DNA of 64,000 nucleotides from an uncultured Litoreibacter sp. (GTDB lineage: Bacteria; Pseudomonadota; Alphaproteobacteria; Rhodobacterales; Rhodobacteraceae): positions 1 to 64,000 of the forward strand of contig CALHHY010000115.1 in assembly GCA_938030665.1 (NCBI GenBank). Direction: 5' to 3'. The notes under the pieces were generated by a model. The model searched no databases and was not told where the DNA came from. It worked only from the letters and a program-made list of their open reading frames with translations. Of this stretch, positions 18,811-34,724 are shown one piece after another. The translations under genes and the position numbers were made by a program. The stretch's first letter is position 1, and every line of letters starts with the position of its first letter.

Positions 18811-21800
18811 TGCGGTCCCTCCAGTGAACATGACAGGGTATGCGCATCCATGGCAGCGCAACCGGCGTAATGGGCCAAGGCAATCCGTCCAGTAGCATGT
18901 CGAACGGTCCCGGCAGCACGTGCAGATGGGTGCCGGTATCGTCCGCCGTCAGACTGCCGGGACGCACCAAAAACGTTTCGCGCAGCCCGTCGGGCGACGT
19001 TTTCCCAAGTCTGCCCCATTGCGCCACGACTGCCGCAAGTAGCCCCTCAATCAGCGCTTCCGTTTCCTCATTCAGCGGCCGCTGCGTAAGTTCGGGCCGC
19101 CCCTCAAGCCCTAGCAGGACATAATGCAATGCATCCGGCCGGCCATGTGATCCGGTGAGACCCTGCAGCACGCTGAAAGCATAATCGCGGCGCGTCTCAA
19201 TGATCTGGCGGTCGGCGTCCAGAATCTCCAATCGCTCAAATAGGAGCCGAAGATGCGGATGGAGCAGCACGAGTCCTGCGTGGTCTGTGATCACATCCTG
19301 GGGCCCGGCGGATGAAGAAGGCGTTTTGCTATCCTCACGAGGCTCAACCGTCTGGTCACTTAGCGATGCCGGTGCGGTTGTCCCGATGTCGGTCAGAACC
19401 GCATCAACCGCAGCGGCAAGCTCATGTCGAAGCGCCGGCCGGGGACCGCCGACCTGATAGGATAGACGTGTCGAAAGGACGCGCGCCAAATCGATCCGCT
19501 CGCTAGTATCTGGCGCAAGCCTTTCAAGACTGGCCGCGACCGAGCCGGCGAGACTCTGTGGAAACGACAAACTCAGAATGCTGAACTCCAGCAGAAAAAA
19601 ATCCTTTGGGGTCGGTATGTTTGACTTTGGCAAAGGCGGCGTATGGGTGGAGTCGTCGCCGCCCAAATCGCCGTGCTTTGCATCAAAAACGTGCCGGTAG
19701 CGTTCTGGAAGCGCCTCCCAGAGCAGTTCGAAATGGCCCCTGTGGATGATAATGTTCGTAGAACCAATAGTGTCTAACAAGCTAGAAAGCACTTCCGCTT
19801 GAGCTTGCTGCACGCCGGACGATAACGGATTCTTCTGAAGTCTCTCCACCAAGAGCGTCAAAGCCTTGCGGTGCTTATTTCGCGAGGTCACCTGCGCCCG
19901 GGGGTTATCGACGTCCGTCGGAATTGTATTGTTCAGACTTACTACGGAGTTGCCGGAAATCGATGAACGATCTCTCCGTTCCCGCCCAGCTTGCGCCTCG
20001 GTCGGTTGGTCAGCTGCGTCCGCTGTTCTTGTGATCACATTCACAGCAACCCCTTGTAACAAGTCTTGCAAAAGAGCTGTTTTTGCGTCTTTGCCCCCCT
20101 GCTTATCGTCGACATTGTTGCGAACATATCGGCGCGCGTCTGGGTGAAGTTGTGCAAGCGCAACGGAGATTAATTGATCTTGCGTCGCGTCAGAAAGCGC
20201 CTGCAACAGCAGGCCCAGCTGCCCATGATACCGACCTGCAAATGCGCGAAGCTGGTGGAATGTTATTGCCGGATCATCCGTTAGGCATTCCCAGAAAGCC
20301 AGGTCACCCTTCTGGACCACATCCGGTGACTGAGATTGCTCGGACCGCCTGCGATTGTCGTTCGGCGTAGCTGAGGCCCGCTTAGACCGGGTTCTCTTTG
20401 ATTGATTTTTGAGGTTGCTACCTGCGGTCGACCTGCCATCCGACGGTCCTGAAAGATCAGAGAAATCGATGGGCCGTTCGTCAAGAAGTGTACGCATCAA
20501 GCGTCTGAGTTTCTCAGGTTGGTCTGCGTAACTTGCGACAAAAGAGGCAAGCGTTGCGCGGAAACGTTCGGCGCCATCCGGAGCCAGCCGGTCGCAAAGC
20601 GTCGCGATGTCTTCCGCGGCAGCAGTACAAATAAACGGCTCTAACCCAGCAGAATTTTCGTTCCACAATCTCCGCAAGGTTTCAGCAGAAGCGCTTACAA
20701 ACTGATCTCTGGTCAACGGTTGAACCGGGTCCAGATGATTGAAGAAGCCAGCAACCCCCACCTGAAGACGCATCACATCGTCCTTATGCTGGCCGACCAT
20801 GCCAATCATATGATGCGCCGCGTTCGGTAGAAAGATCGCAAGATAATCGGCCAGACGGCCAAATGGCGCCGTTTCCAGTACCCTCATCCGTTGCTTAGCG
20901 CTGAGCTTTGCGATGCGAGCAAACTCCTGATGCCAATCCGGCTCGTTGCCTCTAGGGCTATCGCGGCTATAACCAACGTTCGCTGACCCCAGTCTTCGCT
21001 CAATATCAGCCCGGTCCGGGCTTCGAATGGTTTTGAAATCACTCGATGCGCGCGAAGTTAAGTTTTCAAAATTGATGGCAGCCCCGTGGAGTAGTGCCCG
21101 CAATAGCAGTAACCGCTGATCGGTAGACTGAGGCTCCTCACCCAGAACCTGTTTAAGCTTCTGGCGCAATTCGGCGGCCCCTTGGGGGATCAGGTTGATC
21201 AGCAGTTTACGCTGTTCGTTGTCATCAAGTTCCTCGAAATGAGTCTCCAACTGGGTGGGATTGGCTCGCCAAAGCGCTCTTATTGCAGAATGACGATTTG
21301 ACTGATCGGCCGATTTCTTATCCCGCGGGAAAAGCTCTGCATTATAATCTGAACCAGCCAGAAGCGCGCGCAGGCTCGCATGCGACTTTCCGGGTTGATT
21401 GAAAACAGAGAGGATCGTCTGAACGTCGCGGTCCAGCTCAGAAGCGGGGCTTTGAGACGCCAGGAGCGCCCAAATACGATCCCGCCGCTGTTTGGGAATA
21501 TGCGCCTGAACGGCCTCGTTCAAAGCGACAGAGTTCGTCCGACTAAGCGCTCTTAGACCTGCATGCGATATACCTGTCCGACCGAAGACAGCAAGAAGCG
21601 TCTCGATGTCCTGATCCAATTCTGAGGATAGCATGGTTGACCGTACCGGAGCATCGGGCAACGTTTGCGACCCCTCATGGTCAGAGTCTTGTGCCAAGAA
21701 ATTGGTCAGAAGCGGCAGCACCACAGCCGCCGCAAGCAGCGCTGACTTCTGGTCGATCTCCAGATCGTTCGACACGCCCTCAAAGCTCGCCAGAAGCTCG

Positions 21801-22534
21801 GACACATGGTTCTGTACGTCCTCAAGCCAGAAACGATGCGCCTCCAGCTGTTGGACCATGAGCGCATCCCCGCCGCTGTCAGGTCCGTCTGCAAACGGTA
21901 AAGAGCGCTGGAGAATTGCGATGACACTCGAATGCGGCCCCGGTTCCTCTTGAACAAGATAACTCGGCGATGTGAGTTGGTCTTGCAGACGCGCGATGTC
22001 CGCAGCGGACCAGCTTTCATACATCCTCTGACGTCGTGTAGATGTAGAGAATAGGCTGGAATAGAGCCTTTCTTGGTGTTCAGGGTACTGTGCAATATGC
22101 GAAGCGATAATCTGTCGCGCCTTTGCGGCGGAGAGCCGCAAAAGATCGGCGGCCGTTGGCGGTGTGAACGGGTCTGACCCGCGTTCGGTGGGTGCCTCTA
22201 AATTGTCATCTCCCGGACCCTGACCCGGCCAGATCACATAAGGAGCCAGCGCGTTGCGCAGCTTCTGTGCGAAGACGTAGCGCAGCTCTGCCCAGTCCGG
22301 GGGATCGGACCAGTGCCCTAGGTCAATCTCCAATATCTCAACGTCGGCAAGTGCCTGGCGGAGAGGCCCAGCATCCAACACCTGCTCCAACACGGGCAGG
22401 ACCTCTGCTTTCAAGGCCACCGCAAGGCTATCCAGCGTGGCGAGCGAACTATTCAAAGCTTCGACATGCAAGTCCGTCTGCAGGATGCCGATGCGCGGAC
22501 GGACGCGTGCCTTTGAGGTCACCGGCGCGCTCAT
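18803..22534 (-). CDS. Contractile injection system tape measure protein
   Basis: A 1243-residue protein of the CIS_TMP family, thought to set tube length and fill the lumen during assembly. The N-terminal family signature is clear (VLPVLEQVLD, then EILEIDLGHW at residues about 67-76), as is the C-terminal one (GLVLLHPHLRLLFERL, then GLRETFLVRPGSL, FDMLLDGLPWPI and ALPWM near the end). Residues about 305-400 contain two diverged copies of an ELD-D-LL-VF-GKSHA-LRALL unit. The middle (about 20000-22000) has visibly lower GC than its neighbours. It overlaps the upstream baseplate gene by 4 nt. The roughly 1000-residue centre shows no domain I recognise. Confidence 0.85.
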   Translation of the reverse strand: MSAPVTSKARVRPRIGILQTDLHVEALNSSLATLDSLAVALKAEVLPVLEQVLDAGPLRQALADVEILEIDLGHWSDPPDWAELRYVFAQKLRNALAPYVIWPGQGPGDDNLEAPTERGSDPFTPPTAADLLRLSAAKARQIIASHIAQYPEHQERLYSSLFSTSTRRQRMYESWSAADIARLQDQLTSPSYLVQEEPGPHSSVIAILQRSLPFADGPDSGGDALMVQQLEAHRFWLEDVQNHVSELLASFEGVSNDLEIDQKSALLAAAVVLPLLTNFLAQDSDHEGSQTLPDAPVRSTMLSSELDQDIETLLAVFGRTGISHAGLRALSRTNSVALNEAVQAHIPKQRRDRIWALLASQSPASELDRDVQTILSVFNQPGKSHASLRALLAGSDYNAELFPRDKKSADQSNRHSAIRALWRANPTQLETHFEELDDNEQRKLLINLIPQGAAELRQKLKQVLGEEPQSTDQRLLLLRALLHGAAINFENLTSRASSDFKTIRSPDRADIERRLGSANVGYSRDSPRGNEPDWHQEFARIAKLSAKQRMRVLETAPFGRLADYLAIFLPNAAHHMIGMVGQHKDDVMRLQVGVAGFFNHLDPVQPLTRDQFVSASAETLRRLWNENSAGLEPFICTAAAEDIATLCDRLAPDGAERFRATLASFVASYADQPEKLRRLMRTLLDERPIDFSDLSGPSDGRSTAGSNLKNQSKRTRSKRASATPNDNRRRSEQSQSPDVVQKGDLAFWECLTDDPAITFHQLRAFAGRYHGQLGLLLQALSDATQDQLISVALAQLHPDARRYVRNNVDDKQGGKDAKTALLQDLLQGVAVNVITRTADAADQPTEAQAGRERRDRSSISGNSVVSLNNTIPTDVDNPRAQVTSRNKHRKALTLLVERLQKNPLSSGVQQAQAEVLSSLLDTIGSTNIIIHRGHFELLWEALPERYRHVFDAKHGDLGGDDSTHTPPLPKSNIPTPKDFFLLEFSILSLSFPQSLAGSVAASLERLAPDTSERIDLARVLSTRLSYQVGGPRPALRHELAAAVDAVLTDIGTTAPASLSDQTVEPREDSKTPSSSAGPQDVITDHAGLVLLHPHLRLLFERLEILDADRQIIETRRDYAFSVLQGLTGSHGRPDALHYVLLGLEGRPELTQRPLNEETEALIEGLLAAVVAQWGRLGKTSPDGLRETFLVRPGSLTADDTGTHLHVLPGPFDMLLDGLPWPITPVALPWMRIPCHVHWRDRND

Positions 22535-24666
22535 TGTGCCGGCTCCAGCGTTTGTAGAAACGCATGTAATTCGAGTTGACCGTCAGGCGTTGGCTTGATT
22601 TCACGCAACTCTTCAAACCGGGCCATGTGAGGGTGATCCAGCCAAAAGACGTCAATCTTCACATGCGCAGGAGCCAGCCGCTGAACCAGCTGCGCGACAT
22701 AACCGCGGTAGGCATCCAATCGGGTGCGAGCGGTCCAACTTGTGATCAACAATCTTGCGCAATTGGCACGATAAGGCGCGCGGCTTCCAGCGAAGCCAAC
22801 ATCCTCGATCAGGTAACAGCCTTCACTGCGTTCGTGGAGCGCCCGCCAGCTGGCGCGCAGCCGGTGCACTGTCTCAAGGCCATCCGTTTTGTCCAGACCA
22901 GCTGCGATCAGAATAGGCTCTAATCCATCGGAATAGTCAAATAATACCTGCCATCCTTTGTTGTCGTCTGGGGCCATAGTGAAGGCAAACGGATCAGCGG
23001 CTCGGGCGTATAGGGCCGGTGAAAGCACACCTTCTGACACCCAAGGGGACTGTTCACGCAAGATCGCGTCATCATAGGGGAGGGCCTGATCGTCCAGGGG
23101 CACCAACATGTCAAACGGGTTCAGATCGCGCCTGCGTTCGGGATTGGCCACGCGGGCTGGCTGCTGTGGCGCCTCCGCGGCAAGTTGAAAACCACAGGCG
23201 GTAAGGGGCGCGGCGGCATTGCCTGGTGTGATCGGCAAATCAGCGAGCAAGCCAAGATAGCCCAAAAACCCGCCGATCGTCCAGCCGCCGGGTCCCACGC
23301 CCTTCGCTGCGTTGATCTCGGTCAGGGCATGCAGGATGCGTTGCCGCCAGGCCAGCTCGAACGCGTGCCGCTCGCGGGCGCTGCGGTAATGATGCAGCCC
23401 CGTGTGCCGGGTAGCAGGCAGAGTTTCACCATGAAGCGCGATACGGTAGTCCAGCAGCGCGATGCGCTGACGGTAAAGCACAGGATCGTCCAAGGCCGGA
23501 TCGGTCCGCGCCGCGAATATGGCCGGAAGTTCCGCCAACGCTGTGCGGTGCAAATCCAAATGTGTCTCTAAACTGTTACGAAACGCGGCAAGTGGCACGT
23601 CTGAGCGGTCGTGCTGATACCCATGAGCCGGATACAGTCCGGGTAAAAGCGTATCCACATGCGCTGCTTCAAATGACCGATCTTGGCCGCCATAGCGCAC
23701 TTGCCAATCAGCTTGCGTGACATGGTGATGCGTGGTGCTGATCTGCTCCGCAGTGATACGCATCAGCTCTTCCCGGATGGTCGCCGCGGACAGGTCGACG
23801 TTCAGCCCATTCAGCGTGAAATCCAGACCGACCTGACCATCGGTAACCGGGCGGACCGTGGCGTAGAAATTCGGCACCCCGGTGCTGCGACGGTCCAGCG
23901 GGTCTAGCTCAAGCTCGGTGATGTTGCGGATACCGGGAATATCGCGCAGCGTTTTGAGATGCGCGTGCAGGTCGGGGGACCGCGTCCGCCGCGCCCCGCT
24001 GCGCCGCCAAAGGGCAATGGGATCGTCATACACATCGTCTCGCGTCGCCCCGATGACGGTCGTGCGCGTGTAAGGCAGCCCCCGAAGAATGACGGACACG
24101 GCGTGGTAAAGCTCTGCTGCGACCCGCTCCGGCAGGACGGTATCGCTGATCTCGACCTCGCCTTTCAGGATCACGCGCTGCTGTTTGGCAATGACGACAC
24201 GGCCCAACCCGGTGCAAAGCGGCCGAATGCGGGCAAACCCTTCGCGGACGATGGTTTCAAGCCGCTTCGCCCCGATTTGATCTTCGGCCGGAACCACCAC
24301 CGCGTCGTATAACCCCGGCTCCCGAGCAGGATCGACCCAGGCACGGGCAACCCCGGGAAGGTCGGATAGATACGCATTGAGGTCCTGCAAGGTCACGGGT
24401 GCGCTGCGCAGAACCTTTCGCGGGTTGTATTGAGGATGCTCAACGCCTGCTGCAAATGCCCCGTTCTGATCCGTCAGCAGGTCTCGCACCGGAAAATCAG
24501 CCTGATAGGCGGTCTGGCTTAGGGCGAAACACGTCTGCTCCAACAGGGTGACGCCGGGGTCGTGCAGGTTGTAGTCGGTCCATAACTCGCCCGAGGCATG
24601 TTGCGCGTGGTCTATCGCCTCCCGGCGCAGCTCGGCAAAGGTGATATGAGGCGGGTTATCCGTCAT
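22531..24666 (-). CDS. CIS baseplate protein J2 (Afp12-like)
   Basis: A 711-residue baseplate wedge protein. It opens with the family block DYNLHDPGVTLLEQTCFALSQ (residues about 32-52), continues through a region homologous to gpJ/gp6-type wedge proteins (LNAYLSDLPGVARAWVDP, about 95-112) and a central DIPGIRNITELEL, and ends in a domain with HVKIDVFWLDHP. It pairs with the larger J1 protein to form the baseplate wedges that hold the sheath until firing. Both junctions are 4-nt ATGA overlaps. Confidence 0.85.
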   Translation of the reverse strand: MTDNPPHITFAELRREAIDHAQHASGELWTDYNLHDPGVTLLEQTCFALSQTAYQADFPVRDLLTDQNGAFAAGVEHPQYNPRKVLRSAPVTLQDLNAYLSDLPGVARAWVDPAREPGLYDAVVVPAEDQIGAKRLETIVREGFARIRPLCTGLGRVVIAKQQRVILKGEVEISDTVLPERVAAELYHAVSVILRGLPYTRTTVIGATRDDVYDDPIALWRRSGARRTRSPDLHAHLKTLRDIPGIRNITELELDPLDRRSTGVPNFYATVRPVTDGQVGLDFTLNGLNVDLSAATIREELMRITAEQISTTHHHVTQADWQVRYGGQDRSFEAAHVDTLLPGLYPAHGYQHDRSDVPLAAFRNSLETHLDLHRTALAELPAIFAARTDPALDDPVLYRQRIALLDYRIALHGETLPATRHTGLHHYRSARERHAFELAWRQRILHALTEINAAKGVGPGGWTIGGFLGYLGLLADLPITPGNAAAPLTACGFQLAAEAPQQPARVANPERRRDLNPFDMLVPLDDQALPYDDAILREQSPWVSEGVLSPALYARAADPFAFTMAPDDNKGWQVLFDYSDGLEPILIAAGLDKTDGLETVHRLRASWRALHERSEGCYLIEDVGFAGSRAPYRANCARLLITSWTARTRLDAYRGYVAQLVQRLAPAHVKIDVFWLDHPHMARFEELREIKPTPDGQLELHAFLQTLEPAQ

Positions 24667-25523
24667 AGCAGATCCGGATCACGTGGCGGCTGCCCCCGTG
24701 ACCCGCGCATCGTCTGATCAAACCAGAGCCGCGTAAGTCGGTACTGGATCGTGTGCTTGCCACCGAAATCGGCATTTGTGCAAATCTGCAACCGGAAGTG
24801 ATGCGGCGCGGGGTCCTTCACCCAACGCAACCGGATGCGATCCGCGTAGCTGCCATACATCGCGGTTTGCGTTCTGATCTGGCGGCGCCTGAATATCCAA
24901 TTCAACACCCGGTTACGCGGATGGTAGGCGTTCATCGCGATGGCATAGAGCATCGAGTAGCGCCCCTGCCCCTCCTGCCCGCCTGCGCCCGCGACCACCT
25001 CAAAGGCCTGACAGCCGGTCATCTCCTTCGTGATGTCCTGCCATTTGCCGTTGGCGTAGACCTCCTTGACCCCGGCGCTTTCAACCCCGATCCGGCCATG
25101 CATCCGGGCGACCCCGTTTACGTCAAGCGGCCAGGTCGGCTTGTGAAGCCCGATGCCCACCTGCCCGGCAGCGTCAATGCTAATACCGCGTTCAGGCACC
25201 GCATCATTGGCATCTGGCGGTTTGTTAGGGTCTAGTTTATGGGCATTCTTCCCTTTGTCAGGGCGGATATGTAACGCGCCGGGATTGGTATCACCATGCT
25301 CGATCACCCATGATGGGGACGGGGTGCCATAATCCTCATAAAGGCTCATCACCTTTAGCGATGACCCGACCGAGCTCAGCTTCAGCCCGTCAATATCGGT
25401 TTTGTCGAACCCGTCCTCGACCTGATTCACACTGCTGTCGATCAGGTCACGGTAATGGCTTGCGCTTGGCAGCGCGCCATCGCGAAAGAAGGATTTTAAC
25501 GTTGTGCGGTCCGTTTTGCTCAC
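24663..25523 (-). CDS. Short tail-fibre-like protein between the two baseplate genes
   Basis: A 286-residue protein starting with GTG. The N-terminal 60 residues (LKSFFRDGALPSASHYRDLI, VNQVEDGF) would bind the baseplate. The centre carries the classic fibre motif GISIDAAGQVGIG...PLDVNGVARMHGRIG (about 123-163), seen in trimeric phage fibres before the receptor-binding tip. The last 130 residues form a compact basic and aromatic domain with no recognised relative. It is probably the receptor or surface contact element of the CIS; at this size it is a short spike and not a long fibre. One base separates it from the J1 stop. Confidence 0.6.
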   Translation of the reverse strand: MSKTDRTTLKSFFRDGALPSASHYRDLIDSSVNQVEDGFDKTDIDGLKLSSVGSSLKVMSLYEDYGTPSPSWVIEHGDTNPGALHIRPDKGKNAHKLDPNKPPDANDAVPERGISIDAAGQVGIGLHKPTWPLDVNGVARMHGRIGVESAGVKEVYANGKWQDITKEMTGCQAFEVVAGAGGQEGQGRYSMLYAIAMNAYHPRNRVLNWIFRRRQIRTQTAMYGSYADRIRLRWVKDPAPHHFRLQICTNADFGGKHTIQYRLTRLWFDQTMRGSRGQPPRDPDLL

Positions 25524-25524
25524 G

Positions 25525-28500
25525 TCAGCTTCCTTCTCCTACGACCAGCATGTCACCAACGGTGAGGCGGCTGATACCTGTCGGGGCCGCGGGCTCTTGT
25601 TGCAGGTCAGTCTCAACCGTCAGCACATGGTCGCGAGTGGACAATGGCAACGCCCATGGACGGGTAGCACGCAGAACGGCGCCCGCCCCGCGCGCTGTGT
25701 CGGCAAGCCGGTACACCGCCGCATCATCGCCCGCCAGATGCAGCACCGAGAACTCGGACAGGGCGCGGACATATGGCTGGGCCAGGATATGCGCCTGTAA
25801 CGCCCGGATGTTGAGCGACCAGCCAAACCGTCCGAGCGTTTCATCTGCGGTCCAGACCGATAGATAGGCCGCCAGGTCCTTCTTCAGCTGTTGTGCCATG
25901 GCCCCGTTTTCGCGCTCTGGCTCAAAGTCCAGCTTGGCACGCACCTGCAACCGCTCAAAACTTGGGTTAACGACTTCGAGCTGCGCATTGTTAGAGCCTA
26001 TTTTTGTAACAAACGCTTTGATACGGGACAGCGTGGCGACGTCGAACAAACTTGGCTCAAAACTGCCATTTGTCCCATGTACCAAGGCCCGGCGCGCCAC
26101 GACAAGCGTCGCATATCCCGGCTGCGGCATCGGCGTTGTTCGCCGCGTATGGGGCAGGCAGTTGGCCATCCAGACCTCTGGGAAGGCTTCCAGCACCAGC
26201 CGCTCGATGTCCCACGGCGTGACGGCGCGACCCCGGTGTTTCAACCGCTCGCCAACTCGCGTGACAAAGGCCTGTTCTGTTTCCGGGGGGTGGATTGCGG
26301 CGGGGGTCACGATCTCCGAAATGCCTGCAATATCGGGGCGGGCCGGGTTGAAGGTCCAAACCCGGGACGCCGACGCGCCGGGGGCGAAATTGGTGTCGCG
26401 AGCGCTGGCCCAGACGCCATTCACCTTGACCCGTTCTAGCTGCGGGAAGTCGTCCAACCGCTGACCTTGGGCGATGGCCGCAATCCAGACCCCGCCGACG
26501 GGCATCTCGGGCGAGTGCCGGGCGGCATCCTCGGGCAGGTCAATGGAGACAAGCCCCGATCGCATCAGCCCCGCGGTCGTATCAGAAGAGATCGCGGTTC
26601 CCGGCAGACGCTGCCATCCAAGCGGTGACAGATAGTGCCAAGTCACCGGGTTAGATGCGGGCACAACGCGCAAATGCCCGCTTTGCGCCATCTCAAAACA
26701 CAAGACGGTTGGCCCTGTCACATGCGCGCCCGTAAGCTGGATAAACAACTGCCCGAAACCGAACCGTTCCGGGAACAGGCAAATGGGGCGCAGCATGCGT
26801 TGCGGGAAGACCTCGACCTGGCCAAAGGGGCCAACCTGCACGATGCTGTCGCCGGTGCGGGCCGAGTCCGGGGCTGCGACCTCGATCGTGTCAGTGGCCG
26901 TATATGAAAGACTAAACCGGCCTATCTTGGGCACAAAGGGCTTGGGCGGCAGCACCCTTTGCCGCAAAGGGTTCAAACGGGGGCGCATCGCGTCAACCAG
27001 GGCCAGCGGATAGCGATTTGCATGAAATCCACCAGCCGTGCCGCTGAGCCTCAAACGCACGATACCTGCGCGAATGGTCTGACGGGATGCAAACTCCTTT
27101 GCTTTCACCACCCCGTGCGCGGGCTGGGTATGCCCCGTTACCGCGCCGTGGTAGCGCCAGCCTGGCGTCACGACATCGGTGATCGGGTCGCTTTCAAGCA
27201 TCGCAGCCGGTCCGCCTTTCACGGCCTTCCAACCGTCGCCGCTTAGATAGTCGACACTCAGCTGCGGTTTGGGTGCCTCCACGCCGCGGCCATAACTTTC
27301 ATAATGCGTGGACAGCCCGCCGGGTTGATCCGGCAGATCCGTCCAGTCGAGTGATATGCCAACATGAGTGACCGATTTACGCGCCATCTCGGGCGCGCCG
27401 GCAACAAATGTTGCGCCGTCATCCGGTTGGATGCCGAAAGGCAGGAACGTCTGATCCGTGGCAACAAGTCCGTCATCCGAGAACGCGGCGAGGGTTTTCA
27501 GCCCGGCGACCTGCACGCTGATATCAATACTTTCAACCCGGTAGCGTTCGAAAAACGACACCGGGCAGACAACGGCGGACCCGGCCATGCGTAGCGACAG
27601 CTTGGGGGCGGCTCCCGGCGCAAGCCCCGCGATAGCGGGCATGCTGTCATCAAGGGCCATGCTGATGCACAGGCCCGCTGGCGCGCCTTGATCGCTGGGG
27701 GCGACGTGCAGAATGCCGGGCCGCACCATGCCCTGTGCGGTGCTGATCCGAATATCAAATGCGTCGCCCAAAAGCTTTTGGAAAACATCAACAGGTGCGT
27801 TGTCGATTGCGCCATCTGGCAAAGCGGAAAAGGCTCTAAATATGCCCGATTGTTGCACATTCATTGGTGACATGGCGCTATTTGGGTCACGGTTCTGGCC
27901 GGTCAGCTCCGTGCGACCTCTGGCAATCTGCGCAAATATATCGCGCCAATACCGACCCTTCGGGAAGTCAATGTTGTGGATGATGCACAAGCCGGCGATC
28001 CGCATCAACAACAGGCGCAAGGCTAGGATATTGGGCACCGGGTTGCGCGCCAGAACCTCGTAGATCAACCACAGGCTGGGCCGGACGTTTCGACGCCGGG
28101 CGGTGTCGCTGATCTTGAAGGCGAGAAGGTGGATGGCAGATTCAGGTGGGCCCGCACAGAAGGCCGCGATTAACGCCGGATCAGCGCGCAAAGCCAGGAC
28201 CAACTCCGGCTCAACCGTGCCGCGCTTGGGCCGCTCTTCCCCGTCGCGGTAGGGCGTGGATATGGCGGGCAAGTCCGTGGGAGGGCTGAGATTGATCTGA
28301 ACGGTGATCTTGCGCTGCCCCTCGGCCAGTTCAAGCGTGGTCGAGTAAATGTCCAACCCCATGTCGATCGCTGCTGGGGCCCCTGCGTTAAACATCTTCC
28401 CACTGCCCACATCGCCGCCCTGCGCATATGTCGCCGTGACGCCTGTGATCGCGTTGAATGCCGCGTTGAACGACACGTCAGGGTCGGTCTCATAGCTTAA

Positions 28501-29424
28501 CGTGGCAACGGCCGTCACTTTCGCCGGGTTCAGATGGACCCCCGCATCTGTCGCAAAGCTTTGCACGGTGTTGTCAGGCAGCCGCGCCTCTAATCTGCTA
28601 CCCGCAGGCAAAAAGCTGGGTTGGGGCCCGGCGGTCAAATCAAGCAGAACGGTTTCGGGCGTCGCAGGGCGGGGCTTCTGGCCAATAATGTCTTCGTAAA
28701 AGAACCGCGTGTGACGCGGCACAATCGCGTTGATCCGGTCCTCGATCCGGCCGGAAACCTTAATCTCGGCAAGCAAAAGGCCCAGAACAGGCTCTATTCT
28801 TTTCGATTTCAATCGCATCTCGAACGCGGCCCTTGCCTGCGGTTGCAAGGCGGCCACGGCGTTTCGTAACATGCGATGCGCGGTCTCCAGCGCGTGCTTC
28901 ATTGCGCGGGCCTCAGCGATGCCCCCGCGAGCAGACGCGAGCTGAGGGGCGAGACCGGCAGCCTCGATCCCCTTTAGCAGCGCCGTCGGCCTGTATTGTG
29001 CGAGCTCTGCCAGGACACGCTCCAAATCCGCCTCGACATTGAGCTGGTCCAGCTGATCGCGAAACGTATCAAGCGGCCCCGTGCGGATGCGGCCGACCCA
29101 GTGATGCAGCTTCTTGGCCAGGTCGGAGAGTAGCCGAACCGCTTTCAGCGGCTCATAATCAAGCGCATTCTCAAAAGAAAATGCAGCGTCGTCGGCCCGA
29201 AAGGTCAAGATTTCGGCAAATAGAAATGCGGGTTCCTGATGGAAAAGCCGCTGCCAAGGCCCCTTTTCCGGATGAAGCGCGCCCGCAGATAGCCGATTTC
29301 CCGCCGCACAGAACGCCTCCGCCAACCCGTCCATATGGATGCGAAACCTGCCCTCCCCTAATGCAGGAGGCAGGCGGTCGCTGGCGCGGGTGCCGGGTGT
29401 TACGTTGATGTCGGTCCAGTCCAA
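25525..29424 (-). CDS. CIS baseplate protein J1 (Afp11-like)
   Basis: A 1299-residue baseplate wedge protein. The early part is helical, followed by FYEDIIGQKPRPATPETVLLDL and FLPAGSRLEA (residues about 240-290), typical of Afp11/J-like proteins. A large variable centre follows, then a gpJ/gp47-like C-terminal domain (VTPWDIERLVLEAFPEVW, about 1085-1102). The first usable codon is TTG at 29424, 33 nt after the lipoprotein stop; an ATG at 29455 in another frame ends after eight codons. The start is therefore non-canonical and may lower translation. This is the largest protein in the operon. Confidence 0.82.
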   Translation of the reverse strand: MDWTDINVTPGTRASDRLPPALGEGRFRIHMDGLAEAFCAAGNRLSAGALHPEKGPWQRLFHQEPAFLFAEILTFRADDAAFSFENALDYEPLKAVRLLSDLAKKLHHWVGRIRTGPLDTFRDQLDQLNVEADLERVLAELAQYRPTALLKGIEAAGLAPQLASARGGIAEARAMKHALETAHRMLRNAVAALQPQARAAFEMRLKSKRIEPVLGLLLAEIKVSGRIEDRINAIVPRHTRFFYEDIIGQKPRPATPETVLLDLTAGPQPSFLPAGSRLEARLPDNTVQSFATDAGVHLNPAKVTAVATLSYETDPDVSFNAAFNAITGVTATYAQGGDVGSGKMFNAGAPAAIDMGLDIYSTTLELAEGQRKITVQINLSPPTDLPAISTPYRDGEERPKRGTVEPELVLALRADPALIAAFCAGPPESAIHLLAFKISDTARRRNVRPSLWLIYEVLARNPVPNILALRLLLMRIAGLCIIHNIDFPKGRYWRDIFAQIARGRTELTGQNRDPNSAMSPMNVQQSGIFRAFSALPDGAIDNAPVDVFQKLLGDAFDIRISTAQGMVRPGILHVAPSDQGAPAGLCISMALDDSMPAIAGLAPGAAPKLSLRMAGSAVVCPVSFFERYRVESIDISVQVAGLKTLAAFSDDGLVATDQTFLPFGIQPDDGATFVAGAPEMARKSVTHVGISLDWTDLPDQPGGLSTHYESYGRGVEAPKPQLSVDYLSGDGWKAVKGGPAAMLESDPITDVVTPGWRYHGAVTGHTQPAHGVVKAKEFASRQTIRAGIVRLRLSGTAGGFHANRYPLALVDAMRPRLNPLRQRVLPPKPFVPKIGRFSLSYTATDTIEVAAPDSARTGDSIVQVGPFGQVEVFPQRMLRPICLFPERFGFGQLFIQLTGAHVTGPTVLCFEMAQSGHLRVVPASNPVTWHYLSPLGWQRLPGTAISSDTTAGLMRSGLVSIDLPEDAARHSPEMPVGGVWIAAIAQGQRLDDFPQLERVKVNGVWASARDTNFAPGASASRVWTFNPARPDIAGISEIVTPAAIHPPETEQAFVTRVGERLKHRGRAVTPWDIERLVLEAFPEVWMANCLPHTRRTTPMPQPGYATLVVARRALVHGTNGSFEPSLFDVATLSRIKAFVTKIGSNNAQLEVVNPSFERLQVRAKLDFEPERENGAMAQQLKKDLAAYLSVWTADETLGRFGWSLNIRALQAHILAQPYVRALSEFSVLHLAGDDAAVYRLADTARGAGAVLRATRPWALPLSTRDHVLTVETDLQQEPAAPTGISRLTVGDMLVVGEGS

Positions 29425-29457: not shown

Positions 29458-30402
29458 CTACTCAGACGCCGCTTCAGGGGCCGGTTCGGGTGGATCGTCT
29501 GACAGAAAAACGGCACTGATCGTGCCCAGATCGCTTTCGATGATAAGGATGCCCCCGAAGGATTGGGGCGGGCCGGGTCGGTCCATCGGGGCGAATTGGG
29601 AAGCCTCAAAAGAGGCGCGGAGCGGCACGGGTTCGCGGCCCGTTTGGAACGGGTACCGGCGCGCGCCGCTGACGCTTACCTGCACTTCACCTTGCCCGCT
29701 GCTGACAAACCTGGCCCCGCAAAGAAACAGCTCCGTCCAGGTCAACTCCGAGAATGTGACGCGGCCATCGGTCGGCAGCTCGAATATCGTGAATGACCCC
29801 CTGCCCGAACCGTAACCGGCCTCAAACCGGAAGCGCGCCTGAACCTCTTGCGTCGTCAGCCCCCCTTCGTCGTCGAAGGCGTGCAGCTGCAGCGCTACGG
29901 GGCCGGTAAACACCGCCTTGCCAGTGGTAGGAATTTCAGTCGCCGCAGGGCCGGGACCCACAACCAATGGCCCCTGATAATTGACCTTCTTGGTGCGGTA
30001 ATTGAGGTCATAGACATTTGGCAGCTGATCGGTCGGGCCGAAACCGCTGCGTGCCGTCGCCTCCGACTTACGGGAGCCTTTGAATCCATCATCGTCCAAG
30101 GGCCGCAGCCTGCGGATCGCGGTGTCATCAAACTGGATGTTCTTCTTCAGCCCACGCCGGTTGATCCGCCCGTCAATAAAAACAGGGTCGAAGCCAAGTG
30201 CTGCAACGGGTTGGCGCAAGTAAGCGCCGGCCAAGCGACGGCCTTCACGCGGTGTGATCACACAGGGCTGGTCCTGAACAAGCCCTACCAACTGCGCCGT
30301 TGGGCTTTCCTTCACATCATCCACAACCCCCTCGCAGGACGCAAGGAAGGCGGCGGCGAACAGCGCGCAGATCACGGGCGATATGGAGAGGCGCCAACCC
30401 AT
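29458..30402 (-). CDS. Predicted lipoprotein encoded inside the CIS baseplate genes
   Basis: A 314-residue protein. Starting at 30402, one base after the gp25 stop, the N-terminus is MGWRLSISP, a hydrophobic core (VICALFAAAFL) and the lipobox LASC, with Cys23 as the predicted lipidation site and Glu at +2, which favours outer-membrane sorting. The mature part is polar and strand-rich and ends in an acidic Pro/Glu tail; I recognise no family. A lipoprotein within a CIS operon is unusual and suggests that the apparatus, or its baseplate end, is tied to the cell envelope. The signal is clear; the function is inferred. Confidence 0.7.
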   Translation of the reverse strand: MGWRLSISPVICALFAAAFLASCEGVVDDVKESPTAQLVGLVQDQPCVITPREGRRLAGAYLRQPVAALGFDPVFIDGRINRRGLKKNIQFDDTAIRRLRPLDDDGFKGSRKSEATARSGFGPTDQLPNVYDLNYRTKKVNYQGPLVVGPGPAATEIPTTGKAVFTGPVALQLHAFDDEGGLTTQEVQARFRFEAGYGSGRGSFTIFELPTDGRVTFSELTWTELFLCGARFVSSGQGEVQVSVSGARRYPFQTGREPVPLRASFEASQFAPMDRPGPPQSFGGILIIESDLGTISAVFLSDDPPEPAPEAASE

Positions 30403-30403
30403 T

Positions 30404-30844
30404 CTAATAGGCCGGAACGGGCGTGTCGGAGACCAGAGTGCCCTCCCGCTGATAGAAGGGGAACACCATGTTGGCCCGGTCATTGGTCTGATTCACGGTG
30501 TATTCGAGCCGGATCGCCAGACCCCCCTCTAGCCAGTCCTCGGTCTTGACCTCGATATCCAGCAAGGTGATCCGAGGTTCAAAGTACAGCACGGCCTGAG
30601 TGATCGCGACCTCAATCGCCGCATCAAGGTCTTCCCCCATGGGATCAAAAACGAGGTCGAACAGGCGGCAGCCGTAATCGGGCTGCATGATCCGCTCCCC
30701 CGGCCGGGTGCCCATCAGGATGCGCAGGCTTTCCGCGATGTCTTCTTCTGCCGCCACCATGGCCGCGCGCCCAGTGGCCGGGTCAAGCCGCAGCGGGAAG
30801 GCCCATCCGCGCCCCAGAAATGCCGGTTCCACATCATTCATCAA
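30404..30844 (-). CDS. gp25-like baseplate wedge protein (Afp9-like)
   Basis: A 146-residue member of the gp25/lysozyme-like wedge family. The core motifs are ESLRILMGTRPGERIMQPDYG (about residues 38-58), LFDLVFDPM, and a C-terminal half with EPRITL. These small proteins join the sheath to the baseplate in T4, T6SS (TssE) and CIS. It ends one base before the lipoprotein ATG and begins right after the PAAR gene stop. Confidence 0.88.
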   Translation of the reverse strand: MMNDVEPAFLGRGWAFPLRLDPATGRAAMVAAEEDIAESLRILMGTRPGERIMQPDYGCRLFDLVFDPMGEDLDAAIEVAITQAVLYFEPRITLLDIEVKTEDWLEGGLAIRLEYTVNQTNDRANMVFPFYQREGTLVSDTPVPAY

Positions 30845-31135
30845 TTATCCCCCAATCATCACAGTCGGCGCGCCGAGAATGATCGCACCGCCATGGGACG
30901 TCGTGTCGCCCATCCGCGCCGCCGGTTTACCGCCGATCATGACCGTGCCCGAGCCCTTGGCGATGGTCGCAGGCGGCCCGACGCAGGTGCAGTTGTCGCC
31001 CTGAACCGCTGCGGGCAGGCCCGCGATCAGCACCGTCGGCACCCCCGGTCCGATGATTGGCCCGCCCACATGCGGGACGATCCCGGTCACCATCGGGCAG
31101 CTGTGCATGTCGGTCAGTCTTGCGGCTGGTGGCAT
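30845..31135 (-). CDS. PAAR-domain spike tip protein (Afp10-like)
   Basis: A 96-residue PAAR protein: MPPAARLTDMHSCPM, then repeated Gly-rich turns (GGPIIGPG, GGKPAARMGD, GGAIILGAP), with Cys and His residues positioned to bind the zinc at the tip. It sharpens the VgrG-like spike. It has no C-terminal extension, so it carries no fused effector. The ATG at 31135 is favoured by a GAGGGA ribosome site; an in-frame GTG at 31165 would add ten residues. Confidence 0.88.
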   Translation of the reverse strand: MPPAARLTDMHSCPMVTGIVPHVGGPIIGPGVPTVLIAGLPAAVQGDNCTCVGPPATIAKGSGTVMIGGKPAARMGDTTSHGGAIILGAPTVMIGG

Positions 31136-31167
31136 TGTCCCTCGCGCCCCTTTTCCATGTCTCACCC

Positions 31168-32934
31168 TTAGTTGATCATCACGACGCCGCCGGTCACCTT
31201 CGCCTCGCCGCCGCCCTCAAGCGCCGCCGACGCACCGCCACTACCTTTGAACGAGGCGCTCGCGTCGCAGGTCACGTTCACCCCGGAAATGGTAGCATCA
31301 GAGCCTGCGCCGATATCGACCGTGCTAGCTGCCGTCACCTCGATGCTGCCGGCGCTGTCAATCTTGATGCCGCTGCTACCCATGGTGATCGTGTTGCCGT
31401 TGCTGTCAGAGATCTTCACCTCGGCCGCATCGTCATCCATCACCACGCTATGCCCGCCCGGGGTCGAAACGGTGATGATCTTCTTTTCCTCGTCAAAGAG
31501 GATTTTCATGTCCTCCCGCGTGACAATTGACTTGATGAAGTTGTCATCTGTCGGGGCATTGGGCTGGGCCGCCGTCGCGCTATGCAGCGAGCCGATGACC
31601 ACCGGGGCATGCGGATCAGCGTTCAGGAACGCCACCAGCACCTCGTCATCGATCTCAGGCATGAACTGGATCCCGGCGTTGTTGCTGGCATAAGGCTGGG
31701 CATAGCGGGCCCATACCGGCGCGCCCTCGGCCGTAATGAGCGGCAGCAACACCTTGATCCGCAACAGCCCATCGGGGTCTTCTGCCAGCTGCTGCACCTT
31801 GCCAATATGCAGCCCATGGATGGGCGAGGCGAGGCCTTGGGTGACACCCCCGCCGACGGACGGGCCATCCGCCACAAAAGTTTCCGGCAGGCCCAGAGTT
31901 GCTGTCGTCTCCCACTGGCCCTTTTCGGCCTTATGCGTCACGGCGGAGATATAGGCCTTCCCTTCGTACCGCTTACCAAGGTTCTTGAGCTCTAGAACAC
32001 TATTGGCTTGAGCCTTGTTAGAGCCTTGAAACCGGCAGCGCCCCTGAATGCCAGACAAGACGGACCGTGTCAGGCGGGCATCCGACATGGTCTTCAGCTC
32101 CGCCGCGGCCAGCTCCCGCGAGGTGGCGAACGCCAGTTCCCGTTCCACCACGGTCTTGGCCAAATTCGACGGCGTCACATTGCCCCATGTGCTGGAAGGA
32201 AGGGCGCCGCCGACCCCCTCGACAGTTTCTTGTGTTTTGGAATCCCAGGCCCGCCCCTTGGCAGTGCTCGCCAGAAACTGCGCGTCGATCCGCGCGTCGA
32301 ATTCCAGTATGTCGTCGCCCAGAGTGCAGGTCAGAACCGGATCGCCTGATGTGTCAGGGGTGCCGACATGTACCTTGCCTGCGGCAACATAGACAATTTG
32401 CCCATTGCGCTCGGCCACACTGCGCAGAAAATCCCAGTCGGTCATATCATGCTGGATCTGGTCTCGCGCGACGTCCTGCGTGGCGGTGACGTCAGTGGTC
32501 AAACCGTGGTCGGACAGGATCGCGTTGATAACATCACTGTCTTTTTGCTGCTGAAACAGGGTCGTTTTCTTGACGCGCATCATCGCCACCGCCTTGTCGC
32601 GGGCGATGACCTCCAGCACTGGGCCGCGGCTCATCGTGATCCGCATCCGTTTGCCGACAATAACCCCTTCAAAGAACGTCAGCGCGCCCCCGTCACCGTA
32701 GCTGCCCGCGATGGTGATTGCTTTGCCTTCTTCGAAAACGCTGCTGTCGGCTTCGGGAAACTCGCCCTCCGCCACGTCGCCTGCTGCAAGGCGCAGCACG
32801 GCCTCAGGCATCTGCCCCACCCCTTCCTCAGCATGGGCGGAGATGACCTGATAGAAATCCGGAATGGCCGCGCCATCTGTTTTGACCTGCAGACCGAAGA
32901 CACCTTCGGCACCTGTTCTGGGGCTATCGGCCAT
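31168..32934 (-). CDS. VgrG-like spike protein (gp27-gp5 fusion, Afp8-like)
   Basis: A 588-residue central spike protein. The gp27-like ring domains span about residues 1-350 (VISAHAEEGVGQMPEAVLRL, VRDQIQHDMTDWDFLRSVAERNG-type block, and TAKGRAWD). They are followed by an OB-fold (GKVQQLAEDPDGLLRIKVLLP, about 376-396) with VWARYAQPYA and GSLHS. The beta-helix needle consists of short alternating repeats and ends in the final residues MIN, where the PAAR tip docks. No C-terminal toxin is fused. The start lies 3 nt after the LysM gene stop. Confidence 0.9.
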   Translation of the reverse strand: MADSPRTGAEGVFGLQVKTDGAAIPDFYQVISAHAEEGVGQMPEAVLRLAAGDVAEGEFPEADSSVFEEGKAITIAGSYGDGGALTFFEGVIVGKRMRITMSRGPVLEVIARDKAVAMMRVKKTTLFQQQKDSDVINAILSDHGLTTDVTATQDVARDQIQHDMTDWDFLRSVAERNGQIVYVAAGKVHVGTPDTSGDPVLTCTLGDDILEFDARIDAQFLASTAKGRAWDSKTQETVEGVGGALPSSTWGNVTPSNLAKTVVERELAFATSRELAAAELKTMSDARLTRSVLSGIQGRCRFQGSNKAQANSVLELKNLGKRYEGKAYISAVTHKAEKGQWETTATLGLPETFVADGPSVGGGVTQGLASPIHGLHIGKVQQLAEDPDGLLRIKVLLPLITAEGAPVWARYAQPYASNNAGIQFMPEIDDEVLVAFLNADPHAPVVIGSLHSATAAQPNAPTDDNFIKSIVTREDMKILFDEEKKIITVSTPGGHSVVMDDDAAEVKISDSNGNTITMGSSGIKIDSAGSIEVTAASTVDIGAGSDATISGVNVTCDASASFKGSGGASAALEGGGEAKVTGGVVMIN

Positions 32935-32937
32935 GCG

Positions 32938-33624
32938 TCACCTCATAGGCGGGAAGCGCAGCAGCGTTCCCGGCGTCAATGAGCGAAAATTGTCGAGGCC
33001 GTTCAAAGCCGCAATTTCAAGGTACTTGCCCGCGTCCTTGTAGATGCGGTGGCACAGCATCGGCAACGTGTCCCCGTCGACCACCTGAACGACATGGGTC
33101 AGATCAGGCGACTTGCGTTTGGCTTCCAGCGCTTCCTGCGCCTCGGTGCGGGCCTCGATGAAATCCATCTTGATCTTGGCGCGTAAAGCTTCGCCGTTGG
33201 GGTGGAATAGAGTATAATCCATGGACATGGAGGTAAGCCGCCCGAAGAAGGCTTTCAGCCCCTTCCCCCACATGATTTTGACGGCTGTTGGCTCATGCTC
33301 GTCGCCATCATAATCGTAGACGATCTTGCGCAACTGTTCGATCTGCTTCGCGACGGTCTGCTTCTTCTTGTCAGGCACCACCCCGGTGCCGTCGACAATG
33401 ATCGAGAAGCTCACTTTCTCCGGCTCGGCCATCGCATATTTCGGCACCGGGGCGGAGCTGCCAATCGGGTTCTCCCCCTGCCCCATCGTGCCGGTGTAGT
33501 TTAGCCCGAAATTATGCGAATAGCTTTCCGGGTTAATCACGGCCTCAAAGATGTTGGCCGGGCCTTTCTTGGGCTCTATCTTGCTTTTGCCCATCTTGCA
33601 GCGCTGAATGCGGAGCTTGGCCAT
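32938..33624 (-). CDS. LysM-domain baseplate hub protein (Afp7-like)
   Basis: A 228-residue protein. The first 170 residues match the gp53/Afp7-like adapter found between tube and spike (NPESYSHNFGLNYTG, VPDKKKQTVAKQIEQLRK, KIMWGKGLKAF). The C-terminal 50 residues are a LysM motif (VVDGDTLPMLCHRIYKDAGKY, then IAALNGLDN and LTPGTLLRFP). In CISs this domain locks the hub inside the baseplate and need not touch peptidoglycan. The stop of the DUF5908 gene lies 3 nt upstream. Confidence 0.87.
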   Translation of the reverse strand: MAKLRIQRCKMGKSKIEPKKGPANIFEAVINPESYSHNFGLNYTGTMGQGENPIGSSAPVPKYAMAEPEKVSFSIIVDGTGVVPDKKKQTVAKQIEQLRKIVYDYDGDEHEPTAVKIMWGKGLKAFFGRLTSMSMDYTLFHPNGEALRAKIKMDFIEARTEAQEALEAKRKSPDLTHVVQVVDGDTLPMLCHRIYKDAGKYLEIAALNGLDNFRSLTPGTLLRFPPMR

Positions 33625-33627
33625 CGG

Positions 33628-33801
33628 CTATCGCTCCCCCGCGCGTCGCTGCGCGTCCTCAAGCATATCGCGCATCTCGGAAAGCAGGTCGCGGCGCCAT
33701 AGCTCCAACTCTTGCCGTGTTACGGAAGGCGCCGCGTCTCGATCCGCAGGCGCGCTGCCGAACGTGCCTTTGACCACCAATGTCCCGATCTCTACCGCCA
33801 T
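33628..33801 (-). CDS. DUF5908 small protein (Afp6-like)
   Basis: A 57-residue gene. The translation begins MAVEIGTLVVKGTFG, then a short linker, then a charged helix (RQELELWRRDLLSEMRD). This matches the tiny DUF5908 proteins that lie between the second tube gene and the LysM gene in Afp/PVC-type clusters; their role is unknown. The ATG shares its A with the TGA of the upstream tube gene (TGATG), so it is translationally coupled. Confidence 0.8.
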   Translation of the reverse strand: MAVEIGTLVVKGTFGSAPADRDAAPSVTRQELELWRRDLLSEMRDMLEDAQRRAGER

Positions 33802-34256
33802 CAGACTTTCCTTTTGATCGTGTTATACGCAAGCTCGATCGTCTCTACGGCCAGCTCGTTTTTCATCGCGTCAAAGCCGCCAACCTCCCAGCTAACCGGG
33901 TAGGCGTTGGTCACGGTCCAGCTGGCCAGGGGGTCCCCCTCCTCATCCAGAAGGGAAACCGTAAGGTCTTTCGGCTCGATCCGCTTGGCTAGGTCCCGTT
34001 CCAGCGTTGCCTGACACCACTTCACCAACTCGCTGTTCTTCTTGGTCAGACTGCGCTTCAGCTTCAGGTTCGGGTTCTTCGCCGGTTTGGGTAGCTGGTG
34101 GACGAAACGGTTTTCCCCGCCTTCGACCACCGCTTCGGTGTCAAACCCCGCCTTCAGCCCGGACACTTCTTGAAAAGCCGCGTCCGAGATGGACGGGCCG
34201 GCCCCGGAAAAAGCGACCGAGAAGTGAAACGCTACGGGAAAAACAGGGTCTGACAT
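33801..34256 (-). CDS. CIS inner tube / tube-initiator protein (Afp5-like)
   Basis: A 151-residue gp19-family protein: FPVAFHFSVAF, FQEVSGLKAGFDTEAV (about residues 27-42), LKRSLTKKNSELVKWC, and the C-terminal VETIELAYNTI. The second tube paralogue in CIS clusters usually forms the first ring that contacts the baseplate hub. It lies just after the main tube gene and before DUF5908, the same order as in Afp. Confidence 0.88.
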   Translation of the reverse strand: MSDPVFPVAFHFSVAFSGAGPSISDAAFQEVSGLKAGFDTEAVVEGGENRFVHQLPKPAKNPNLKLKRSLTKKNSELVKWCQATLERDLAKRIEPKDLTVSLLDEEGDPLASWTVTNAYPVSWEVGGFDAMKNELAVETIELAYNTIKRKV

Positions 34257-34265
34257 GGCTTAACA

Positions 34266-34724
34266 TCACGCGTTTTCGATCACGAAGCCCTCATGGGCGA
34301 TCTCGATGCTTTCGACCGCGACCTCATTGCCCTCGGCCTTCAGATCAGTGCCCTGCACCTTGACCGGGAAGGCGTTTTGGACCTTCCAGACCATGGTCGG
34401 CGCCTGCGCCTCGTCCAGCAGCGAGATCGTCAGCGCCTTACGCTTGATGGTGTTCATCTTCACCTCTTTGAACCAGTCAAACAGCGCGTTGTCCTGAATG
34501 AAGACGCCTTTCTTCATTGTGATGTTGGAGTATTTGATCATCCCCGGCATCTTGATCTTGGAGAAGACCGGGTTGTTGCCCGCGCGGTATTCCAGCGGTT
34601 CGTTTTCCATGTCGAGGCCGGAGACCTCCTGAAACGCCATTTCCGTGTCGTCCCACTTCACCTGGAAATGGAACTTTGGAAGCGGCCAGATTGCGTTTGT
34701 TTGGGCGGAGCCATCATCTGCCAT
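34266..34724 (-). CDS. CIS inner tube protein (Afp1-like)
   Basis: A 152-residue gp19/Hcp-like tube protein: KFHFQVKWDD, FQEVSGLDMENEPLEYRAG (about residues 33-51), ITMKKGVFIQDNALFDWF, and the C-terminal VAVESIEIAHEGF. Stacked hexamers form the rigid tube that is expelled through the membrane. It follows the sheath gene by 22 nt and is likely the major tube subunit. Confidence 0.9.
   Translation of the reverse strand: MADDGSAQTNAIWPLPKFHFQVKWDDTEMAFQEVSGLDMENEPLEYRAGNNPVFSKIKMPGMIKYSNITMKKGVFIQDNALFDWFKEVKMNTIKRKALTISLLDEAQAPTMVWKVQNAFPVKVQGTDLKAEGNEVAVESIEIAHEGFVIENA

What the first reader, a model, noticed from the sequence alone, without database searches (positions are those of the whole stretch)
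29458..30402. Lipoprotein gene set between gp25 and baseplate J1
The protein has a clean lipobox (LASC, Cys23, Glu at +2) and starts one base after the gp25 stop, so it is made together with baseplate parts. A lipidated periplasmic-facing protein would not meet a cytoplasmic baseplate unless the apparatus is anchored across the envelope or the lipoprotein acts as an exit port or receptor.
Basis: partly seen in the sequence, partly recalled or inferred. Interest (0 to 1): 0.72.

Follow-up and report, generated by a model that had tools for sequence, protein, structure and literature searches.

The report
Lipoprotein tied to an injection machine
In one branch of marine and soil bacteria, every copy found of a phage-tail-like injection machine carries, next to a baseplate gene, a gene for a membrane-anchored lipoprotein with the predicted shape of a transferrin-binding surface protein, which suggests that this machine is coupled to the cell envelope rather than being a simple free-floating particle.

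Summary
On the minus strand, 29458-30402 encodes a 314-aa protein with a type II signal peptide (LASC|E). It starts one base after the gp25 stop and ends 33 bases before the large baseplate gene J1. It is conserved: 20 Rhodobacteraceae loci with this J1 type all have it directly upstream of J1. The lipobox Cys is kept in all 19 that have a sequenced N-terminus, and each mature protein has exactly three cysteines, the lipidated one plus an invariant pair. Ordinary eCIS loci, including four in the same family, go straight from gp25 to J1. The predicted fold is a TbpB lobe (handle plus eight-stranded barrel; Z 15), yet 11 of 13 carriers lack a detectable Slam exporter. The gene belongs to a co-inherited membrane set: a large signal-peptide/TM protein (24/25 carriers, 0/15 others), a permease-like pair with a solute-binding domain, and a GluR0-like channel. 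Best reading: the outer-membrane lipoprotein of an envelope module that docks or gates this injection machine, doing what TssJ/TssR do in T6SS without being related. Docking is inferred, not shown. Rivals: a self-recognition shield or receptor; a ligand sensor. New variant of a known kind.

The parts
29458..30402 (-). TbpB-fold lipoprotein (LIPO), 314 aa; lipidated Cys23, conserved Cys47 and Cys228
   Evidence: translation; orthologue alignment A2; Cys census; AlphaFold2 pLDDT 80.7; Foldseek TbpB C-lobe E 2.2e-7; VIA Z 15.0
30404..30844 (-). gp25-like baseplate wedge protein, immediately upstream
   Evidence: PF04965 E 2.1e-25
25525..29424 (-). J1-type baseplate protein, always directly downstream of LIPO
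   Evidence: phrog_33902 E 4.7e-7, phrog_219 baseplate wedge E 0.03; 20/20 adjacency
24663..25523 (-). Tail-fibre/Cis13-like protein between J1 and J2, no TM segment
   Evidence: profile hits Bd2133 fibre E 0.0013 and All3316 (Cis13) residues 3-41 E 0.059
22531..24666 (-). J2-type baseplate protein
   Evidence: TIGR02243 E 8.5e-9
18803..22534 (-). CIS tape measure protein
   Evidence: PF19268 E 1.7e-44
17476..18861 (-). AAA+ ATPase of the CIS
   Evidence: PF00004 E 2e-27
14162..17479 (-). 1105-aa protein with signal peptide, large predicted periplasmic part and C-terminal TM segments; co-inherited with LIPO
   Evidence: hydropathy; 24/25 LIPO genomes versus 0/15 others; profile hit to 9r9a_B E 1.9e-9; PG_binding_1 only E 0.11 in one member
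30845..31165 (-). PAAR tip
   Evidence: PF05488 E 9e-26
31168..32934 (-). VgrG-like spike
   Evidence: PF04717 E 1.9e-21
32938..33624 (-). CIS_tube/LysM protein
   Evidence: PF19266 E 1.2e-44
33801..34724 (-). two tube proteins (33801-34256, 34266-34724)
   Evidence: PF06841 E 2.7e-43 and 2.1e-50
34747..37050 (-). sheath protein with cadherin-like insert
   Evidence: PF17482 E 1.1e-10, PF16184 E 2.4e-13
37067..37810 (-). conserved gene of unknown role between Pvc16 and sheath
   Evidence: found in several orthologous loci
37807..38382 (-). Pvc16-like cap protein
   Evidence: PF14065 E 4.7e-33
38528..39205 (-). degenerate amino-acid ABC-permease-like membrane protein
   Evidence: TM segments; colinear to 4yms_D, E 0.25 only; strong in 18/25 LIPO genomes, 0/15 others
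39163..40848 (-). solute-binding-domain plus permease-like fusion
   Evidence: PF00497 E 8.4e-22; TM segments
41576..42907 (-). GluR0/ionotropic-glutamate-receptor-like channel (split SBP domain around two TM segments)
   Evidence: PF00497 split in two stretches; best PDB hits Slr1257/GluR0 E 8.5e-9; present in 16/18 LIPO genomes

Best explanation
The gene encodes an outer-membrane-targeted lipoprotein with a TbpB-like handle-and-barrel fold. It is the outer part of an envelope module dedicated to this clade of contractile injection systems. SHOWN: the gene and its lipobox; the invariant place upstream of J1; exclusive linkage to this J1 clade; co-inheritance with a signal-peptide/TM protein and, in most carriers, with permease/SBP and GluR0-like membrane proteins; absence from the other eCIS loci examined. 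PREDICTED: the fold, the lipidation, one disulphide (Cys47-Cys228), and sorting to the outer membrane (no Asp at +2, by the E. coli rule). INFERRED: the lipoprotein faces the periplasm and, together with the 1105-aa membrane protein, forms a docking or exit site. J1 and the baseplate are brought there before firing, and the SBP-bearing membrane proteins feed in an outside signal. It would then do the job that TssJ (T6SSi) or TssR (T6SSiii) does, by an unrelated protein.
For: LIPO lies directly upstream of J1 in 20/20 loci found by searching with J1, not LIPO; one has a 183-aa secreted protein inserted between them (L053). In 390 genomes of the order, all 16 strong LIPO hits (loci L068-L083) adjoin J1. 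LIPO and J1 diverge in step (rho 0.78, Mantel 0/2000). Other eCIS loci have gp25 then J1 with no LIPO. Mature proteins have exactly three Cys in the window and in 19/19 N-terminally complete orthologues, as expected for one lipid anchor and one disulphide outside the cytoplasm. Membrane partner 14162-17479 is in 24/25 LIPO genomes and 0/15 controls, five of which have other eCIS (Fisher 4e-10). Permease-like 38528 is strong in 18/25 versus 0/15. GluR0-like 41576 is in 16/18. The T6SS membrane gene DotU is absent from 16/21, so most of these genomes cannot borrow a T6SS complex. Precedents for dedicated CIS membrane factors: TssJ and TssR lipoproteins (PMC10781749), CisA (PMC12237407), tCIS (PMC8894136).
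Against: No direct evidence of contact between LIPO and any CIS part. TbpB-like lipoproteins are known as surface binding proteins, not assembly parts. The locus also has a fibre-like gene (24663-25523), as released eCIS do, and no component was shown to bridge cytoplasm and periplasm. In many Roseobacter loci a spacer of roughly 80-135 bases, possibly with a promoter, separates LIPO from J1, so the two are not always one transcript. The 1105-aa partner model is poor beyond residue 600.
Confidence: 0.45

Rival explanations
1. Self-recognition shield or receptor: LIPO sits on the outer surface, as TbpB, fHbp and HpuA do, and either binds the machine's own fibre or tip to protect sister cells (like phage superinfection-exclusion lipoproteins) or serves as its recognition handle.
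For: The fold is that of Slam-type surface lipoproteins; no inner-membrane retention signal; a fibre-like gene is in the operon.
Against: PF04575 (Slam) found in only 2 of 13 LIPO genomes, the window's own among them; LIPO neighbours the baseplate gene J1 rather than the fibre, and co-diverges with it.
Confidence: 0.2
2. Ligand sensor: LIPO binds an extracellular protein or small molecule and, with the SBP-permease pair and the GluR0-like channel, triggers production or firing without touching the baseplate.
For: TbpB-type proteins bind ligands; the cluster carries three proteins related to amino-acid binding or transport, two of them with solute-binding domains, conserved beside the CIS.
Against: The permease-like gene is missing in 7/25 carriers while LIPO and the 1105-aa protein stay; the LIPO position is fixed to J1.
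Confidence: 0.15
3. Assembly or release helper: LIPO perturbs or opens the outer membrane, or helps lysis, so that particles can leave.
For: eCIS are classically released by lysis (PMC12237407); no holin/endolysin gene was recognised by Pfam among the operon genes scanned.
Against: A 314-aa ligand-binding-type fold is unlike spanins or lysis lipoproteins (short, Pro-rich, from general knowledge); no lysis partner.
Confidence: 0.1
4. Genetic hitch-hiker: a host surface-lipoprotein gene trapped between baseplate genes with no role in the machine.
For: TbpB-like lipoproteins also occur outside CIS loci (L008, L084, L085).
Against: 20/20 linkage across genera, survival of operon splits and inversions, co-divergence with J1, never found strongly without J1.
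Confidence: 0.07

Closest known systems
TbpB / LbpB / HpuA / fHbp / NHBA surface lipoproteins (Pfam TbpB_B_D, PF01298)
   Same: Lipobox; predicted handle plus eight-stranded barrel; TbpB C-lobe Foldseek E 2.2e-7, VIA Z 15.0 over 200 residues at 4.2 A. Sequence bridge: the LIPO profile hits L085, which matches PF01298 at E 2.2e-5, just under cut-off.
   Different: No direct Pfam match; no adjacent Slam gene and no Slam detected in 11/13 genomes; fixed position in a CIS operon.
TssJ of T6SSi and TssR of T6SSiii (membrane-complex lipoproteins)
   Same: Lipoprotein made with a contractile machine that also has dedicated membrane proteins (precedent: PMC10781749).
   Different: No TssJ match among Pfam families; structure hits are to TbpB-type barrels; no TssL/TssM in the operon; the machine is of the eCIS type (CIS_tube, CIS_TMP, Pvc16, AAA).
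Thylakoid-anchored CIS (Anabaena tCIS)
   Same: eCIS-type genes; fibre-like protein with weak N-terminal similarity to Cis13/All3316 (E 0.059).
   Different: There anchoring is by a Cis13 TM helix and a Cis12 extension (PMC8894136); here the Cis13-like protein has no TM segment and separate membrane proteins exist.
CisA of Streptomyces CIS
   Same: Accessory membrane factor encoded by the CIS locus next to baseplate genes (PMC12237407).
   Different: CisA is a bitopic TM protein of a monoderm, encoded downstream of the baseplate genes; LIPO is a lipoprotein upstream of J1 in a diderm.

Membership tests
Bacterial lipoprotein (signal peptidase II substrate) | N-terminal hydrophobic segment followed by a lipobox with invariant Cys | tested here: met
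   LASC in the window; Cys in 19/19 N-terminally complete orthologues
Bacterial lipoprotein (signal peptidase II substrate) | Diacylglycerol on the Cys | not testable with these tools
   needs mass spectrometry or labelling
TbpB-like surface lipoproteins (Slam-dependent) | Handle plus eight-stranded beta-barrel fold | tested here: met
   AlphaFold2 pLDDT 80.7; TbpB/NHBA/fHbp/HpuA fill the match list; predicted only
TbpB-like surface lipoproteins (Slam-dependent) | Direct match to TbpB_B_D (PF01298) | tested here: not met
   0 families for P0001; none of 21 members matched PF01298
TbpB-like surface lipoproteins (Slam-dependent) | Slam (PF04575) in the genome or beside the gene | tested here: not met
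   2 of 13 LIPO genomes, and not beside the gene
TbpB-like surface lipoproteins (Slam-dependent) | Exposure on the cell surface | not testable with these tools
   needs protease or antibody accessibility
eCIS-type contractile injection locus (for the surroundings) | Sheath, tube, CIS_tube, VgrG, PAAR, gp25, J-type baseplate, CIS_TMP, AAA, Pvc16 | tested here: met
   Pfam/NCBIfam/PHROG matches
T6SS membrane complex (TssJLM) | TssJ homology of the lipoprotein | tested here: not met
   no TssJ family among Pfam or NCBIfam matches
T6SS membrane complex (TssJLM) | DotU/TssL available in the genome | tested here: not met
   absent from 16 of 21 LIPO genomes; the window's genome has one on another contig
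tCIS | Cis13 with a transmembrane helix | tested here: not met
   24663-25523 product has no TM-like segment
CisA | Sequence homology to SCO4242 | not tested
   no CisA sequence was compared

The most novel reading that the evidence does not exclude
Rhodobacteraceae carry a further class of contractile injection system that works from the cell envelope. Built from eCIS parts, it has its own trans-envelope complex, unrelated to TssJLM or TssNQOPR, made of a TbpB-fold outer-membrane lipoprotein and a large periplasmic/TM protein. It is gated by a glutamate-receptor-like channel and an SBP-permease pair that senses amino acids.
Probability: 0.3. Interest if true: 0.87.

Novelty: new variant of a known kind. 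Interest (0 to 1): 0.62.

Why it matters
eCIS are usually described as free particles let out by lysis; envelope anchoring outside T6SS is known in only a few cases. A clade in which a lipoprotein and other membrane proteins are always inherited with the baseplate gives a genetically testable case of how a particle-type machine could be tied to, or triggered through, a two-membrane envelope. It would also be a role for the TbpB fold other than binding host proteins. Full-text searches of the held library found no paper describing these loci; that is not proof that none exists.

Tried and rejected
Direct family searches of the lipoprotein gave nothing useful: Pfam and PHROGs 0, NCBIfam only a T6SS-immunity lipoprotein model at E 0.042 covering just the signal region. 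Viral contigs with J1: no relatives. Phage and plasmid records with LIPO: no match. Viral fold library: no match below 0.001. The fold of the 1105-aa membrane protein was confident only to about residue 600, and its structure searches gave nothing; its one solved relative, 9r9a_B 'uncharacterized protein' (E 1.9e-9), could not be identified further. Rejected: TssJ homologue (no match); prophage lysis lipoprotein (size, fold); artefact of a wrong start (orthologues agree). The first gene caller mis-called some high-GC loci and seemed to lose LIPO in four of them; a profile search recovered all.

Full report
OBSERVATION. The gene lies on the minus strand, 29458-30402, and encodes 314 aa with a signal peptide ending LASC|E. 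Its ATG is one base from the gp25 stop. gp25 is PF04965. The next gene, a 1299-aa J-type baseplate protein (J1), starts 33 bases after the lipoprotein stop. The surroundings are a complete eCIS-type operon: Pvc16, sheath, two tubes, CIS_tube/LysM, VgrG, PAAR, gp25, LIPO, J1, a fibre-like protein, J2, tape measure and AAA.

ORTHOLOGUES. To avoid bias I searched with J1, not with the lipoprotein. One scan of genome contigs found 20 Rhodobacteraceae loci (Roseobacter, Paracoccus, Rhodovulum, Octadecabacter, Cereibacter and unnamed relatives) and one short Cupriavidus contig. All 20 have a LIPO orthologue directly upstream of J1; in one (L053) a 183-aa secreted protein sits between them. In Rhodovulum and Cereibacter the sheath genes are inverted or moved and gp25 is not next door, yet LIPO stays with J1. 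In 390 genomes of the order, the 16 strong LIPO hits besides the window all adjoin J1; two weak hits elsewhere are other TbpB-like lipoproteins. In the family sample the six genomes with close J1 relatives are the ones whose LIPO hits lie at J1. Four genomes with distant J1 relatives and readable upstream sequence have gp25 then J1 with nothing between, as do the Azospirillum and Aureibacter plasmids; in Pararhizobium no gp25 was called but J1 likewise follows PAAR without LIPO. Pairwise identities of LIPO and J1 rise and fall together (rho 0.78; 0 of 2000 permutations).

LIPOPROTEIN CHARACTER. Nineteen of the 20 orthologues have an N-terminus, and all 19 keep the Cys; -1 is always A, G or S, +2 is never Asp. 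Position -3 is relaxed (P, C or S) in five. The mature part has exactly three cysteines in every complete sequence: the first residue and two invariant ones (window Cys47, Cys228). That pattern fits one lipid anchor and one disulphide, hence a place outside the cytoplasm. The pairing itself was not measured.

FOLD. AlphaFold2 on the 21-row alignment gave pLDDT 80.7, pTM 0.77, an almost all-beta protein after the signal. Foldseek against the PDB returned TbpB lobes first (5kkx E 2.2e-7). VIA-align gave Z 15.0, 200 residues, 4.2 A, followed by NHBA, fHbp and HpuA. All are surface lipoproteins with a handle and/or an eight-stranded barrel (reviewed in PMC7857515). A sequence bridge agrees: the LIPO profile finds L085, which matches TbpB_B_D at E 2.2e-5. 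But the exporter of such proteins, Slam (PF04575; PMC5449769), was detected in only 2 of 13 LIPO genomes. So it has the fold but cannot be filed as a Slam-dependent surface lipoprotein.

COMPANIONS. The same operon ends with a 1105-aa protein with a signal peptide and C-terminal TM segments. It occurs in 24 of 25 LIPO genomes and in none of 15 controls, including five with other eCIS (Fisher 4e-10). Upstream of Pvc16 lie a permease-like protein (strong in 18/25, 0/15), an SBP-permease fusion, and a protein with a solute-binding domain split by two TM segments, whose best solved relatives include the GluR0 ligand core; the last is in 16 of 18 genomes. I saw no ABC ATPase gene among the operon genes scanned. 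The T6SS gene DotU is absent from 16 of 21.

MECHANISM. Lipoprotein, membrane partner and J1 form a co-inherited set. The simplest reading is an envelope module for this machine: LIPO on the outer membrane, the 1105-aa protein spanning the inner membrane and periplasm, the baseplate docking from inside. Shown: sequence, linkage, co-occurrence. Predicted: fold, lipidation, disulphide, sorting. Inferred: docking and gating. T6SS offers the analogy (TssJ, TssR; PMC10781749), CisA and tCIS the nearest non-T6SS precedents. Rivals (shield/receptor, ligand sensor, release helper, hitch-hiker) are given with their tests.

VERDICT. It is a new variant of a known kind (an eCIS-type locus with a dedicated lipoprotein and membrane set), and possibly more if docking is shown.

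Noticed in passing
41576-42907 (-): GluR0/ionotropic-glutamate-receptor-like protein: solute-binding domain split around two TM segments with a K-channel-like stretch TIGLKGVGDSYTTP; present in 16 of 18 LIPO genomes, usually just upstream of the CIS.
   Followed up: partly
38528-40848 (-): SBP-permease fusion and a second permease-like protein next to the CIS; the second has the VIGADEIVGRA stretch reminiscent of amino-acid permeases but no recognisable Pfam match. They may be sensors rather than transporters.
   Followed up: partly
14162-17479 (-): 1105-aa signal-peptide/TM protein co-inherited with LIPO (24/25 versus 0/15); profile hits solved chain 9r9a_B 'uncharacterized protein' in three colinear stretches.
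   Followed up: partly
34747-37050 (-): Sheath protein carries a cadherin/CshA-like insert of about 200 residues in the middle.
   Followed up: no
L047, L048, L055, L056, L060, L065 downstream of LIPO stop: Conserved spacer of roughly 80-135 bases between LIPO and J1 with CTTGC...(about 17)...ATA-like elements that look like an own promoter for J1.
   Followed up: no
L053 / G001:C12 (118,708 bases): CIS genes run off one end of the contig and the 1105-aa gene lies near the other end, so the contig is probably a circular replicon; LIPO-J1 are separated from the permease and GluR0 genes by about 30 kb.
   Followed up: no
60269-60865 (+): Another predicted lipoprotein (MSRQMITPFRAMALLLLLAACGS) away from the CIS operon.
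   Followed up: no
24663-25523 (-): Fibre-like protein between J1 and J2 with weak N-terminal similarity to Cis13 of the thylakoid-anchored CIS and to a Bdellovibrio fibre.
   Followed up: partly
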